Shown here: positions 1-39,867 of the stretch, piece after piece
How positions within the stretch are numbered: position 1 is the stretch's first letter
How the letters are laid out: the number at the start of each line of letters is the position of its first letter
DNA from: Alphaproteobacteria bacterium
GTDB taxonomy: Bacteria; Pseudomonadota; Alphaproteobacteria; Caulobacterales; Aquidulcibacteraceae
Assembly (NCBI GenBank): GCA_027484265.1
Contig: JAIXTH010000130.1
Span: 1-42,694, forward strand
Direction of reading: 5' to 3'
Length of the DNA stretch: 42,694 bases
The notes under the pieces: generated by a model
Database searches by the model: none
Seen by the model: the letters and a program-made list of their open reading frames with translations, nothing else
What the model was told of the DNA's origin: nothing
Program-made: the position numbers and the translations under genes

Positions 1-53
1 CGCCATCCTTGAGACCGGCCGTCCCGCCCGCATCCCCGCCGTCAGCGACGGGC
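1..53. repeat. Partial copy of a long palindromic repeat, cut by the window edge
   Basis: These bases match the reverse complement of 247-299, one arm of the palindrome at 233-387, at about 42 of 53 positions by hand count. The identical blocks include CGCCATCCTTGA at the start and CAGCGACGGGC at the end. The partner arm would lie before base 1. Two related copies within 400 bases suggest a dispersed extragenic repeat family. Confidence 0.6.
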
Positions 54-93
54 GACACCGGGGAAAAGGGTTGAAGAGGAAGGCCCAAAGAGC

Positions 94-112
94 TGTGCGC
101 CAAGGGCGCACA
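94..112. other. Perfect 8-bp hairpin with 3-base loop
   Basis: TGTGCGCC (94-101) pairs with GGCGCACA (105-112) around the loop AAG. It lies in the purine-rich stretch 54-232 between the two palindrome copies. No T-run follows, so it is not a standard terminator. I see no gene in 54-232; short reading frames there lack any recognisable product. Confidence 0.4.
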
Positions 113-232
113 AGTTCGAGGAAATGCCCCCGTCCGCTCGGGGCTCGCCAAAGAAAAGGGGGGTGGAGTGTGCGGTAAGGAGGCGCTGGGGTAAGGCCGA
201 ACCTGAGGCAACCCGCATCTCTCCCAGTCCCT

Positions 233-387
233 GTTGTCCGGCTTCGGCCCGTCGCTGGAGGCTTGGTTGCGAGCGGCACGGTTGGCGTCAAGGATGGCGA
301 AGCCACCGCTTGCGGCGCGAAGCGTCCTTGATGCCGACCGGGCCGTCTGCGACCAAAGCCGCAAGCGACGGGCCGAAGCCGGGCAAC
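233..387. repeat. Long imperfect palindrome (about 63-bp arms)
   Basis: Bases 233-295 are the near reverse complement of 325-387, about 52 of 63 positions with one single-base indel. Several mismatches are transitions that would be G-U pairs in RNA. The apex holds two small hairpins: GGC-GAA-GCC (296-304) and CGCTT/AAGCG (307-311 with 320-324). The element is non-coding in any convincing frame. It could be a cruciform-forming extragenic palindrome, a miniature mobile element or a structured RNA. I do not recognise a named family. Confidence 0.65.
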
Positions 388-500
388 AGGTCTGCGCAGC
401 ATTCTTGGCCCACCCTCGTGAGCGCAGCTGCGGGCAGCCGCGCTCCAGCGAGTCGAAGGGCCGCGTTGCGGGAATTCAACATGGCTTGGTCAGCAGTCTG

Positions 501-520
501 GCAGGGCATGGCTGCCCTGC
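501..520. other. 8-bp hairpin upstream of the PepSY operon
   Basis: GCAGGGCA (501-508) pairs with TGCCCTGC (513-520) around a four-base loop. It has no T-run and lies about 75 bases before the first gene of the operon. Its role is unknown; it may affect the leader RNA or be another extragenic repeat remnant. Apart from this and the repeat at 557-576, I see nothing in 388-596. Confidence 0.3.
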
Positions 521-556
521 GTCCGGGGCAGTTGGCGGGGGCGGCTGCACGCTCTA

Positions 557-576
557 TTCAACTATGGTTCAGTTGA
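557..576 (+). promoter_or_regulatory. Candidate response-regulator binding site
   Basis: TTCAACT (557-563) and TTCAGTT (568-574) form a direct repeat with an 11-base period. The same bases contain an inverted repeat, TCAACT (558-563) and AGTTGA (571-576). Direct repeats with about 11-base spacing are the usual target of OmpR/PhoB-type regulators, and one is encoded two genes downstream. The site ends 20 bases before the first start codon. Autoregulation is an inference. Confidence 0.35.
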
Positions 577-596
577 GACGTGCCAGAAGCGCCCCC

Positions 597-950
597 ATGA
601 GACACACAGTCCTCCCCCTCCTGGCCGTCCTCGTGGCGGCATCCGCCAGCCCGGCCGCGGCAGATCCGCTGGTACCGGGCCTGCTTCCCTGGGTCCTGCC
701 AGCCCCCGCCGACAGCGGGCGCGAGGCGGTGGTACAGGTGCGCCAGGCTCGCCAGCTGTCGCTGCGCGAGGTTGCCCAAATCATCGATGCGCGGGTGCCG
801 GGCCGCCTGTCCGATGCCCAGCTGGTCGAGCAGAATGGCCGGATGGTCTATATCATTCGCTGGGAGCCGTCGGACGAGAACGCCCGGGGCCGGATCATCA
901 TCTTCGTGGTCGACGCCGAGACCGGCGCGATCCTGTCGCGGCGAGGTTAG
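597..950 (+). CDS. Exported PepSY-domain protein
   Basis: This is a 117-residue protein with a typical Sec signal peptide: MRH, a hydrophobic stretch, and an Ala-rich cleavage region around residues 18-23. The mature part from about residue 50 resembles a PepSY domain (ARQLSLREVAQIIDARVPG, then a beta-rich segment ending in VDAETGAILS). PepSY domains occur in periplasmic sensor or inhibitor proteins. The gene is six bases ahead of a response regulator gene and so heads a three-gene operon with it and a histidine kinase. Small PepSY proteins beside such pairs are common in Proteobacteria and may modulate the kinase, which is inference here. The start at 597 is chosen because the signal peptide begins there; upstream in-frame sequence is the non-coding palindrome region. 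Confidence 0.85.
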   Translation: MRHTVLPLLAVLVAASASPAAADPLVPGLLPWVLPAPADSGREAVVQVRQARQLSLREVAQIIDARVPGRLSDAQLVEQNGRMVYIIRWEPSDENARGRIIIFVVDAETGAILSRRG

Positions 951-956
951 GGTTTC

Positions 957-1643
957 ATGCGGTGTCTTGTCGTCGAGGATGATCCAGACCTGCGGCGCCA
1001 GCTGGTGCGGGCACTGTCGGATGCCGGCTATGCGGTGGATGCGGCGGGCGATGGCGAGGAAGGCCACTTCCTCGGCGATACCGAGCCCTATGACGTGGTG
1101 GTGCTGGATCTCGGCCTGCCGGTGGTGGACGGTGTCACCATCCTCGAGCGCTGGCGCGACGAGGGCCGGGCGTTCCCCGTCCTGATCCTCACCGCCCGCG
1201 ACCGCTGGAGCGAGAAGGTGGCCGGCTTCGATGCCGGGGCCGATGACTATCTCACCAAGCCGTTCCACATGGAGGAGCTGCTGGCCCGGCTGCGCGCCCT
1301 GGTGCGGCGGGCGGCGGGCCATGCCACCCCGGCGCTGGAATGCGGTGCCCTGCGGCTGGATACACGGGCGCAGCGGGCAGCGGTGGACGGCAATCCGGTG
1401 AAGCTGACCAGCCACGAGCTGCGGCTGCTCACCTATCTGATGCACCACTCGGGCCGGGTCGTGCCGCGCGGCGAGCTGATCGAGCACATCTATGATCAGG
1501 ATTTCGACCGCGATTCCAACACCATCGAAGTGTTCATCGGCCGGCTGCGCAAGAAGATCGGCCAGGACCGGATCGTGACCGTGCGCGGCCTTGGCTACCA
1601 GCTGGTGGACCCTGACAACGGTCCGGGAACAGGCGCGGCGTGA
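957..1643 (+). CDS. OmpR/PhoP-family response regulator
   Basis: This 228-residue two-domain regulator has an N-terminal receiver domain with the acidic pair D8-D9, the phospho-acceptor D51 in VVVLDLGLP, T79 and K101 in LTKPF. A C-terminal winged helix DNA-binding domain covers about residues 125-220 (SHELRLLTYLMHHSGRVV, then a recognition region ending in VRGLGYQLV). All receiver residues needed for phosphorylation are present. It lies between a PepSY gene and a histidine kinase gene whose GTG start overlaps its TGA stop, so the two are probably translationally coupled. The layout resembles PhoP-PhoQ type systems, but the signal and target genes cannot be told from the sequence. Confidence 0.93.
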   Translation: MRCLVVEDDPDLRRQLVRALSDAGYAVDAAGDGEEGHFLGDTEPYDVVVLDLGLPVVDGVTILERWRDEGRAFPVLILTARDRWSEKVAGFDAGADDYLTKPFHMEELLARLRALVRRAAGHATPALECGALRLDTRAQRAAVDGNPVKLTSHELRLLTYLMHHSGRVVPRGELIEHIYDQDFDRDSNTIEVFIGRLRKKIGQDRIVTVRGLGYQLVDPDNGPGTGAA

Positions 1644-37275: not shown

Positions 37276-38073
37276 CTAGCGGCGGCGGGCACCGCGGCAG
37301 GCGGGAACCGTCAGGCCGGCTGGCAGGCGGGTAGCGGTATCGCCGCAGGCTTCGTTCAGCTGGCGCTGGGTGAGGCCGCGGGCACCGGACAGATCGGCGC
37401 CGGAGAGGTTGGCGCCGGCCAGGTCGGCATTGCGGAAGTCGGCCCGGCTGGCGCGGGCACCTGACAGGTTGGCCCCGGTCAGATCGGCCTGTTCGAACGA
37501 GCTGGAATCAAGCCGGGCACGGCTCAGGTTCGAACCGGTGAATTCGGCCTGATCGAACGAGGCATTCATCGCCACCACGCCCGCCATGTTGGCCGCGCTG
37601 AACTGCCCCGCGCTGGCCCGGACCCCGGTGAGGGTTGCGCCCTGCAGGTTGGCGCCCACCATCTCGACCCGCTCGAGCGTGGCGCCGGAGAAGTCGGTGC
37701 GGGCGAGGACCGTGCCGTTCATCTCGGCTTCGCGCAGGCCGGTGCCGATGAAACTGGCACCATCGAAGTTCGAGCCGGACAGTTCGGCAAACGCCATGTC
37801 GGCGCGGTCGAAGCTGGCGCGGGCGAAGTTGCCACCGGTCATCTCCACCCGGCGCATCCGGGCACCGGCAAAGCGTGCACCGGCGAAGTTCCCGCCGGAC
37901 ATCCGCGCGCCATCGAGGTTGCGCGACGAGAGGTCGCACCCGGCGCAGGAGCCGGAGAAGCCGCGCGAGAAGGTGACGGAGGCCGGCTTGCCCTGCTCCC
38001 AGGTCCAGGCGCTGGCCTGGGCCGGCATCAGGGCAAGGGCTGCAAGGCCGAGAAGAGCTGCACGGTTGATCAC
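37276..38073 (-). CDS. Exported pentapeptide-repeat protein (longer paralogue)
   Basis: The 265-residue product has a signal peptide (NRAALLGLAALALMPAQASA) and then a region of about 35 pentapeptide repeats of the A(D/N)Lxx kind (GANLSGARASRADFRNADLAGANLS), which should build a right-handed beta helix. Shortly after the signal it has a Cys pair in SGSCAGCDLSSRNL, and the C-terminus has LTQRQLNEACGDTATRLPAGLTVPACR. The same two end motifs occur in the upstream neighbour. Start GTG 38073 fits the signal peptide. A periplasmic role is likely; the function is unknown. Confidence 0.85.
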   Translation of the reverse strand: MINRAALLGLAALALMPAQASAWTWEQGKPASVTFSRGFSGSCAGCDLSSRNLDGARMSGGNFAGARFAGARMRRVEMTGGNFARASFDRADMAFAELSGSNFDGASFIGTGLREAEMNGTVLARTDFSGATLERVEMVGANLQGATLTGVRASAGQFSAANMAGVVAMNASFDQAEFTGSNLSRARLDSSSFEQADLTGANLSGARASRADFRNADLAGANLSGADLSGARGLTQRQLNEACGDTATRLPAGLTVPACRGARRR

Positions 38074-38157
38074 GGTTCCGGGCTTAGCCGATCTGCTGTG
38101 AACACGCCATTTAAATGTCTGTAACGCGGACCTTGTCCGCCGGCCAGCAACGCAGAA

Positions 38158-38182
38158 GGGCCGGTCCATGGCGGACCGGCCC
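38158..38182 (-). terminator. Probable terminator between the pentapeptide genes
   Basis: A perfect 10-bp stem, GGGCCGGTCC (38158-38167) with GGACCGGCCC (38173-38182), around a 5-base loop lies 24 bases beyond the 38207 stop. On the minus strand only TTCTGCGTT follows, so the T-tract is weak. Confidence 0.6.
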
Positions 38183-38206
38183 GATGTCTGTGCGCGTGCC
38201 TGGACC

Positions 38207-38704
38207 TCAGCGGCAGGCGGGAACCGTGAGGCCGCGCGGCAGCTCGGTGGAGGCATCGCCGCAGGCGCTGTTCAGCTGGCGCTGGGTCAGGCCGCGGGCT
38301 CCCGCCAGCTCGGCGCCGGACAGGTTGGCACCGGTCAGATTGGCACCCGAGAAGTTGGCGCTGGAGAAATAGCCGCCCACCAGAACCGCCTGGGTCAGGT
38401 CGGCACGGGAGAAGTTGGCGCCGGTGGCCCGCACGCCATACATGTTGGCCAGCGACAGGTTGGCGCGGCTGAAGTTGGTGCGGTCGGCCGTCGCCAGCGA
38501 CATGTCCGACTGGCGCAGGCGCGCACCCGACAGGTTCAGGCCCGAGATGTTCTCGTAGTCGAGATCGGCCTGGAACAGGTTGCAGCCAGGGCAGCTGCGA
38601 CGCTCCTTCACGGATGCAATCTGCGACGCGTTCTGGGCCAGGGCCGGCTGGGCAAAGCTGGCAACGAGCCCGGCGAGGGCGGCGGCAAGGGCGGCGTGTT
38701 TCAT
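38207..38704 (-). CDS. Exported pentapeptide-repeat protein (shorter paralogue)
   Basis: The 165-residue product has a signal peptide (KHAALAAALAGLVASFAQPALA), a Cys pair soon after it (RRSCPGCNLFQADL) and about 17 pentapeptide repeats (ATGANFSRADLTQAVLV; SANFSGANLTGANLSGAELAGA). It ends GLTQRQLNSACGDASTELPRGLTVPACR (quoted in part), almost identical to the end of the longer paralogue 133 bases downstream. The two genes are therefore probably a tandem duplication whose repeat number has diverged. Both are predicted to be periplasmic. Nothing shows what they bind. Confidence 0.88.
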   Translation of the reverse strand: MKHAALAAALAGLVASFAQPALAQNASQIASVKERRSCPGCNLFQADLDYENISGLNLSGARLRQSDMSLATADRTNFSRANLSLANMYGVRATGANFSRADLTQAVLVGGYFSSANFSGANLTGANLSGAELAGARGLTQRQLNSACGDASTELPRGLTVPACR

Positions 38705-38841
38705 ATCAGGACGCTCCGCTGAAAAGCTTGAGGGTTCGGGGTGGTGGTTGCAGGTGCCATGCCGGACGGCGTGTCCCCAACTGACCCCGGTACACAGCGC
38801 CATTCTAGCAGGCCCGGCTGTCTGGCGGGTTAACGGATCGG

Positions 38842-39867
38842 TTACCCTGCCGGTTCCGGTCCGATCTGTACCAGAAGCTTGCCGTCGTGGTTGCCGGTGA
38901 ACAGGCGGCCGAGGGCATCGGGGGCGTTCTCGAGCCCGTGCTCGACATGCACCTTGTACTTGAGCTTCCCCTCCAGCAGCCAGCCCGCCAGAGCGGTGAC
39001 CGCCTCTTCCATCCGCGGGAAATAGTCGAGCACGATGAAGCCCTGCACCTTGATCCGCCGCATCAGCACCCGGTCGAAGAAGCGCGGGCCCGGCACCTCG
39101 CCCTCGGCATTGTAGGTCGAGATCATCCCGCACAGCGGCATGCGCGAGAAGTCGTTCATCCGCTCCATCACCGCATCCATGATCGGACCGCCGACATTCT
39201 CGAAGTTCACGTCGATGCCGTTGGGGCAGAGGCGGTCGAGGGCCGCACCCACATCCTCGCTTCGATAGTCGATGGCGCCGTCGAACCCGAGCTCGTCCAC
39301 CAGCCAGCGGCACTTGTCCGGCCCGCCGGCAATGCCGATCACGCGCGCACCCTTGATCTTCGCGATCTGCCCCACGATCGAGCCGACGGCGCCAGCGGCC
39401 GCCGACACCACCACCGTCTCGTTCGGCTTGGGCTGGCCGATGTCGAGCAGGCCGAAATAGGCGGTCCAGCCGGTCACTCCCAGCACGCTCATGAAGGCGG
39501 TCGGGTGAATGCCCGGAAGGGTGGGCAGCGCGCGGCACATCGCGCCCCACGCCACTTCATAGTCCTGCCACCCCGACAGGCCCGGACTGACCAGCATGCC
39601 CGGGGTGAAATTGGGATCGCGGCTCTCCTCCACCACGCCCAGCGTGCCACCGCGCATCACCGCCCCCAGCTCCACCGGCGGCAGATACTGCTCGCGGTCG
39701 CTCATCCAGATCCGGTTGGTGGGATCGAGCGAGAGCCAGATATTGCGCACCAGCACCTGCCCTTCTGCCAGCTCGGGCAGCGGCACGGTTTCCAGCGTCA
39801 GCACATCCGGCGTGATGGCCCCGACGGGGCGGTTCTTCAGGACCCAGCGGCGATTCATGCGGTTCAT
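38842..39867 (-). CDS. NADP-dependent medium-chain oxidoreductase (CurA/leukotriene-reductase type)
   Basis: The 341-residue zinc-independent reductase starts MNRMNRRWVLKNRPVGAIT, with LVRNIWLSLDPTNRIWMSD, the cofactor motif VVSAAAGAVGSIVGQIAKIKGARVIGIAGG (quoted in part), and DVNFENVGGPIMDAV. These match the NADPH-dependent curcumin / 2-alkenal reductase group, which reduces alpha,beta-unsaturated carbonyls. No zinc-binding cysteines are seen. It is the last gene of an operon with ABM, acyl-CoA dehydrogenase and membrane hydroxylase genes, 28 bases after the hydroxylase. It could act on an enone or enal made in that pathway. Confidence 0.9.
   Translation of the reverse strand: MNRMNRRWVLKNRPVGAITPDVLTLETVPLPELAEGQVLVRNIWLSLDPTNRIWMSDREQYLPPVELGAVMRGGTLGVVEESRDPNFTPGMLVSPGLSGWQDYEVAWGAMCRALPTLPGIHPTAFMSVLGVTGWTAYFGLLDIGQPKPNETVVVSAAAGAVGSIVGQIAKIKGARVIGIAGGPDKCRWLVDELGFDGAIDYRSEDVGAALDRLCPNGIDVNFENVGGPIMDAVMERMNDFSRMPLCGMISTYNAEGEVPGPRFFDRVLMRRIKVQGFIVLDYFPRMEEAVTALAGWLLEGKLKYKVHVEHGLENAPDALGRLFTGNHDGKLLVQIGPEPAG

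What the first reader, a model, noticed from the sequence alone, without database searches (positions are those of the whole stretch)
1..387. Long palindromic repeat family with two copies at the left edge
233-387 folds into a stem of about 63 bp with an apex of two small hairpins, and 1-53 repeats one arm (about 42 of 53 matches). Many arm mismatches are transitions that keep G-U pairing in RNA, hinting at selection on RNA structure. I know of no named family with this sequence. It could be a miniature mobile element, an extragenic palindrome or a structured RNA.
Basis: partly seen in the sequence, partly recalled or inferred. Interest (0 to 1): 0.6.

Follow-up and report, generated by a model that had tools for sequence, protein, structure and literature searches.

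The report
Dispersed intergenic palindromes with hairpin crowns
The left edge of this contig holds two members of a large family of non-coding inverted repeats, scattered between genes in this bacterium, whose one strand is kept able to fold into a long stem crowned by three tiny hairpins; relatives of the crown occur sporadically in other bacteria, so it is a repeat of a familiar sort with unusual features and an unknown mobiliser.

Summary
Window 230-390 (type A, + strand) is a palindrome of about 65 pairs. Window 1-70 is the arm of a second, related palindrome (type B, minus strand), cut off by the contig end. The window is a whole contig of a fragmented MAG, and such repeats mark many of its contig ends. 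The genome holds about 11 full and 8 truncated A copies and some 35-40 places with B or its linker, in mosaics of palindromes between genes. Neighbouring genes show no fixed orientation. Substitutions at paired positions favour G-U over A-C on the + strand (29 to 8), but not in unpaired or flanking sequence, so the fold of one strand is under selection. The apex is three mini-hairpins whose variants reassort between A and B; h1 and h3 carry GNA loops. The same crown on unrelated arms occurs in 35 of 299 genomes of the order and in some Actinomycetota. Orthologous loci in a related genus differ by presence of the palindrome. No Rfam match, Y1 or IS110 transposase was found in the own genome. 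Best reading: a non-autonomous extragenic mosaic repeat (REP/BIME/RIME-like in kind), recognised as a folded single strand, probably DNA. The mobiliser is unknown.

The parts
1..70 (-). Type B palindrome, 5' arm plus start of apex, cut by the contig end
   Evidence: BLAST to about 35-40 type B places in the genome; R1 covariance-model match truncated at window 1-23 minus
71..121 (-). Spacer and accessory hairpin H (90-117) that precedes type B palindromes
   Evidence: same module before B in many copies
122..163 (-). Linker module (CCTTTTCTTTGGCGAGCCCCGAGCGG in B orientation)
   Evidence: shared by B composites
164..229 (+). Linker module X (GGCGCTGGGGTAAGGC ... CCCAGTCCCTGTTG) between B and A
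   Evidence: same module in L005, L009, L030, L049; other copies carry an extra hairpin between repeated CCTGTTG words
230..390 (+). Type A palindrome: about 65-pair stem with a three-hairpin apex
   Evidence: fold and shuffles; 11 full-length copies at 87-100% identity
289..331 (+). Apex core CAAGGA...TCCTTGA with hairpins h1 295-305 (loop GAA), h2 306-315 (loop TT), h3 316-324 (loop GAA)
   Evidence: h1 loops GAA/GTA in 31 of 31 copies and h3 loops GAA/GCA in 30 of 31; R1 match 277-341, 77 bits
391..400 (+). Conserved 3' tail TCTGCGCRGC of type A copies
   Evidence: shared right border of A copies

Best explanation
Shown: this is a dispersed, non-coding, intergenic mosaic repeat built of palindromic modules, and the fold of one strand is conserved across copies. 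Inferred: it is a non-autonomous genomic parasite of the REP/BIME/RIME kind. It spreads when its + strand, exposed as single-stranded DNA, folds into a long stem crowned by three mini-hairpins and is handled by an enzyme supplied in trans (a recombinase or the replication-repair machinery). h1 and h3 follow the GN(N)A rule of very stable DNA mini-hairpins. Exchange between folded copies, or template switching, would explain the reassorting hairpins. Copies inside transcripts would also make structured RNA, as a by-product.
For: Copy number and scatter. Neighbouring genes without fixed orientation (19 +, 15 -). Arms covary: 98.1% of cells paired, 122 cells changed on both sides against 42 in shuffles, score 0.280 against 0.04-0.07 for slid controls. 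Derived states at Watson-Crick pairs go to G-U 29 and to A-C 8 (p 0.0008), while unpaired and flanking positions show no such bias (21 to 28; Fisher p 0.002). The + strand folds better in 31 of 31 copies with RNA and with DNA energies. GNA loops in h1 (31 of 31) and h3 (30 of 31); GN(N)A in 62 of 84 loops of 37 apexes tallied by hand, partly favoured by the query. PMC4686876 gives GNA/GNNA as the stable DNA mini-hairpin rule. Hairpin variants largely independent of the arms and of each other. Presence/absence at orthologous sites in a related genus.
Against: No Y1 transposase (PF01797) and no IS110-family transposase (PF02371) in the own genome, which is 87% complete. No target duplication seen. 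h2 has non-GNA loops. Selection could equally act on RNA. Own-genome copies have no empty site available, because no close relative is held. Hairpin reassortment could be inflated by assembly of repeats at contig ends.
Confidence: 0.5

Rival explanations
1. RNA-level element: the + strand is transcribed, and the long hairpin acts in the transcript (mRNA 3'-end protection, RNase III site, or a family of small RNAs); selection keeps the RNA fold.
For: G-U bias and covariation; in G837 a palindrome-bearing mosaic lies between a stop codon and a terminator-like hairpin, so it would be transcribed; Sinorhizobium REP elements with transcriptional activity are reported (PMC2873474).
Against: Orientation to neighbouring genes is random; h1 and h3 loops follow the DNA GN(N)A rule, and loops such as GTCA and GGCA are not all GNRA; no promoter-like or terminator-like site in window 1-1000.
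Confidence: 0.3
2. Mutational upkeep without function: palindrome arms are kept alike by template switching in hairpins, and the strand bias reflects one strand being exposed more often.
For: Block replacement of nine bases on both arms between G004 copies; easy loss of a palindrome core at one locus.
Against: Substitution bias is confined to paired positions; template switching would erase G-U mismatches rather than keep them.
Confidence: 0.12
3. Non-autonomous derivatives, targets or passengers of IS110-family insertion sequences, mobilised by a guide-RNA recombinase.
For: Crowned palindromes lie 3' of divergent IS110-family transposases in G436, G663, Skermanella, Azospirillum ISAzs32 and S. 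sojae; REPs are known IS110 targets (PMC1525189).
Against: No IS110 transposase found in the own genome; the module lies in opposite orientations relative to the gene in ISAzs32 and G436; palindromes without a nearby match to these transposases in L188, L196, L197.
Confidence: 0.1
4. Assembly artefact at contig ends (false inverted joins or chimeras).
For: Most copies sit at contig ends.
Against: Copies inside contigs with both flanks (L030, L037, L045, L049), imperfect arms with biased substitutions, and similar palindromes in single-contig genomes.
Confidence: 0.03

Closest known systems
REP / BIME elements mobilised by RAYT (Y1) transposases
   Same: Abundant extragenic palindromes in mosaics of alternating orientation; a single-strand hairpin is the presumed recognised form; some enterobacterial REPs listed in PMC2817692 contain GCGNAGC
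   Different: About 160 nt instead of roughly 20-40, three-hairpin crown, no GTAG head seen, no Y1 transposase found in the genome
RIME, Sm-repeats and A/B/C palindromes of rhizobia
   Same: Alphaproteobacterial intergenic mosaics of several palindromes with conserved sequence and secondary structure and unknown function (PMC2573895)
   Different: No DNA similarity of the window element to any of 72,556 plasmids, Sinorhizobium megaplasmids included; crown architecture not known to me for RIME
IS110/IS1111-family insertion sequences and their 3' non-coding region (seekRNA/bridge RNA)
   Same: Several alphaproteobacterial IS110-family elements have a crowned palindrome 3' of the transposase gene
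   Different: No transposase in the own genome; a long stem with three small hairpins was not shown to match a bridge RNA; orientation relative to the gene varies
ERIC-type and MITE-type repeats
   Same: Non-autonomous, intergenic, long imperfect inverted repeats
   Different: No match in 5,426 E. coli genomes; no target duplication or parent transposase seen

Membership tests
REP/RAYT (REPIN) | Extragenic palindromic repeat in many copies | tested here: met
REP/RAYT (REPIN) | Cognate Y1 transposase (PF01797) in the genome | tested here: not met
   no hit in own genome while controls rang; genome 87% complete
REP/RAYT (REPIN) | Short hairpin with GTAG/GTGG head tetranucleotide | tested here: not met
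   no such head seen at the borders of the copies; palindrome about 160 nt
RIME / rhizobial palindromes | Sequence similarity to rhizobial repeats | tested here: not met
   no blastn match in plasmids including Sinorhizobium; rhizobial chromosomes not searched by DNA
RIME / rhizobial palindromes | Intergenic mosaic of several palindromic modules | tested here: met
   modules A, B, H, linker, D, E
IS110/IS1111 derivative | DEDD transposase (Transposase_20) in the element or genome | tested here: not met
   present with related palindromes elsewhere
MITE of a DDE transposon | Terminal inverted repeats with target site duplication | tested here: inconclusive
   no duplication recognised at two orthologous sites in a related genus; no empty site for the own copies
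Rfam structured RNA family | Match above gathering score | tested here: not met
   none; best sub-threshold matches VA, mir-B6, CC3552

The most novel reading that the evidence does not exclude
A class of mobile palindromes spread over Alphaproteobacteria and Actinomycetota that is recognised, as a folded single DNA strand, through a crown of GN(N)A mini-hairpins closed by CAAGG/CCTTG; the crown hairpins are exchangeable cassettes that reassort between copies, and the enzyme that reads them is undescribed.
Probability: 0.2. Interest if true: 0.75.

Novelty: new variant of a known kind. Interest (0 to 1): 0.5.

Why it matters
Extragenic palindromes are common, but how those without a RAYT partner spread is open. 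Here the substitution record shows that one strand's fold is what is kept; h1 and h3 loops follow the DNA rather than the RNA stability rule; and the apex behaves like a set of exchangeable hairpin cassettes shared between two element types. The same crown on unrelated arms across an order and in Actinomycetota gives a searchable signature (a covariance model) for finding the mobiliser.

Tried and rejected
RAYT mobilisation was tested with PF01797 in the own genome: none. IS110 mobilisation was tested with PF02371: none. Rfam gave no family at gathering threshold; VA, mir-B6 and CC3552 matches with E 0.03-3.7 are below threshold, and the two lowest E-values fit any long hairpin. Plasmids, viral contigs, phages and E. 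coli genomes gave no match to the window element or its apex pattern. Five of the 13 apex-pattern hits in genome contigs (L054, L055, L056, L058, L062) do not show the crowned palindrome and look like chance matches. A link to particular neighbouring genes was rejected: orientation is random, and Nocardia neighbours differ. rplQ as a test locus failed: its ortholog was not found in the own assembly by DNA.

Full report
Observation. The window is the complete contig C23 of a 326-contig MAG of 3.07 Mb, 87% complete. Its family includes a MAG titled Hyphomonadaceae bacterium Prado210, so the host is probably an alphaproteobacterium of that family (inference). Window 230-390 is a long imperfect palindrome (z -12.3 as RNA, -13.1 as DNA). 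Window 1-70 is one arm of a related palindrome on the other strand, cut by the contig end.

Copies. BLAST of 225-395 against the own genome finds 11 full-length type A copies at 87-100% identity and about eight truncated ones. A type B query finds roughly 35-40 further places, some of which hold only the linker and accessory hairpin. A and B arms share 62% of positions but their apex 95%. Most copies lie at contig ends, as expected for repeats that break a short-read assembly, but several lie inside contigs with both flanks. The composites combine A, B, an accessory hairpin H, linkers, and other palindromes (D, E). The window itself reads B(-), H, linker, X, A(+). Neighbouring genes have no fixed orientation (19 +, 15 -; a GC3-based gene call). 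The nearest gene in the window is a PepSY protein starting at 597, followed by a response regulator and a histidine kinase.

One strand's fold is kept. On 29 full copies, 98.1% of cells of the consensus structure pair, 15 of 60 pairs have changes on both sides, and the covariation score is 0.280, against 0.153 in shuffles and 0.04-0.07 when the partner is slid. Many of the double changes are the A-B difference, so they are few independent events. An independent test does not depend on that: at Watson-Crick pairs, derived states lead to G-U 29 times and to A-C 8 times (binomial p 0.0008, structure fixed in a strand-neutral way). Unpaired positions and flanks show 21 to 28 for the same directions of change (Fisher p 0.002). 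All 31 copies fold better on the + strand, with RNA and with DNA parameters.

The crown. The apex CAAGGA...TCCTTG holds three hairpins. h1 has loop GAA or GTA in 31 of 31 copies; h3 has GAA or GCA in 30 of 31, on three interchangeable stems (GC, GCCC, GCATC) found in both A and B; h2 has TT or CCC-like loops. Variants of h1, h2 and h3 combine almost freely: 24 combinations of type and hairpins in 29 copies. Most associations with arm similarity or with each other are weak; three reach p 0.02-0.04 (A-type h2 with arm similarity; type with h1; h2 with h3 stem), with no correction for the number of tests. Chimeric assembly could contribute.

Relatives of the crown. A scan of 84,980 genomes with the pattern CAAGGATGGCGNAGCCACCGC found it on long stems in Nocardia (four species), Actinophytocola, a Nocardioidaceae MAG, a Rhodobacteraceae MAG and Prado210. 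A covariance model (R1) finds at least one match in 16 of 60 family genomes (E 1e-3), 12 of 385 genomes of the class (1e-5), 6 of 399 of the phylum and 35 of 299 of the order (1e-6, 12 of 54 genera). Some weak matches did not fold as crowned palindromes. In many cases the arms have unrelated sequence yet pair well; in G004 nine consecutive bases are replaced on both arms between copies. Apical loops outside the own genome were printed for 44 distinct apexes. From that printout I tallied by hand the loops of 37 apexes on the better strand: 62 of 84 are GN(N)A. The pattern and model favour GNA in h1, so the nominal p value there overstates the case, but h2 and h3 were not in the pattern and mostly follow it too. 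GNA and GNNA loops closed by C-G are the rule for extraordinarily stable DNA mini-hairpins (PMC4686876); loops such as GTCA or GGCA are not all GNRA. Hence I lean to DNA.

Mobility. The own genome has no close relative in the held set, so no empty site could be tested. In a related genus (g473) copies of 130-210 nt are scattered at non-orthologous loci. At one locus G837 carries a palindrome-bearing mosaic of about 540 bp, between a stop codon and a terminator-like hairpin, where G920 has none. At another, G892 has the palindrome core and G920 only remnants of its base. No target duplication was recognised. The second case may be a deletion.

Possible mobilisers. The own genome shows no Y1 transposase and no IS110-family transposase. 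Elsewhere, crowned palindromes lie 3' of divergent IS110-family transposases in five settings. In G436 and G663 they lie inside the repeated IS unit; G436 and Skermanella are 87% identical across the 3' stretch that holds the palindrome but 78% across most of the rest of the IS. In ISAzs32 the module is in the opposite orientation, so it may be passenger, target or part.

Verdict. A dispersed extragenic mosaic repeat of a known kind, with a crown that is unusual in its GN(N)A hairpins, cassette-like variation and sporadic spread across phyla. The step from conserved single-strand fold to mobilisation as single-stranded DNA is inference.

Noticed in passing
L143:1345-2865; L181:1113-2838; L189:2501-3920; L190:2501-3869; L191:779-1960: IS110-family insertion sequences of alphaproteobacteria with a crowned palindrome 3' of the transposase gene; the 3' stretch holding it is 87% identical between G436 and Skermanella, against 78% for most of the rest of the IS.
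   Followed up: partly
L206:2766-3340 against L237:10253-10291: A palindrome-bearing mosaic of about 540 bp lies between a stop codon and a terminator-like hairpin in G837 and is absent at the orthologous site of G920.
   Followed up: partly
L051/L065, end of contig: A type B copy lies downstream of rplQ in the Prado210 MAG, 92% identical over 133 bp to this genome's B although a different genus.
   Followed up: partly
L039:2245-2524, L035, L050: Two further palindrome families (D and E) in the same genome; E has a two-hairpin apex with GNA loops and about 20 copies.
   Followed up: no
L145, L150: An extra apical hairpin CCAAAATGC...GCATTTTGG is shared by palindromes of two different genomes, suggesting hairpin modules move between elements.
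   Followed up: no
window 266-366: Sub-threshold Rfam match to the Caulobacter sRNA CC3552 (16.2 bits, gathering 50, E 3.7); possibly worth checking whether that sRNA is a crowned palindrome.
   Followed up: no
window 37276-39550, minus strand: Two adjacent pentapeptide-repeat proteins whose genes share a 150-nt stretch at 81%.
   Followed up: no
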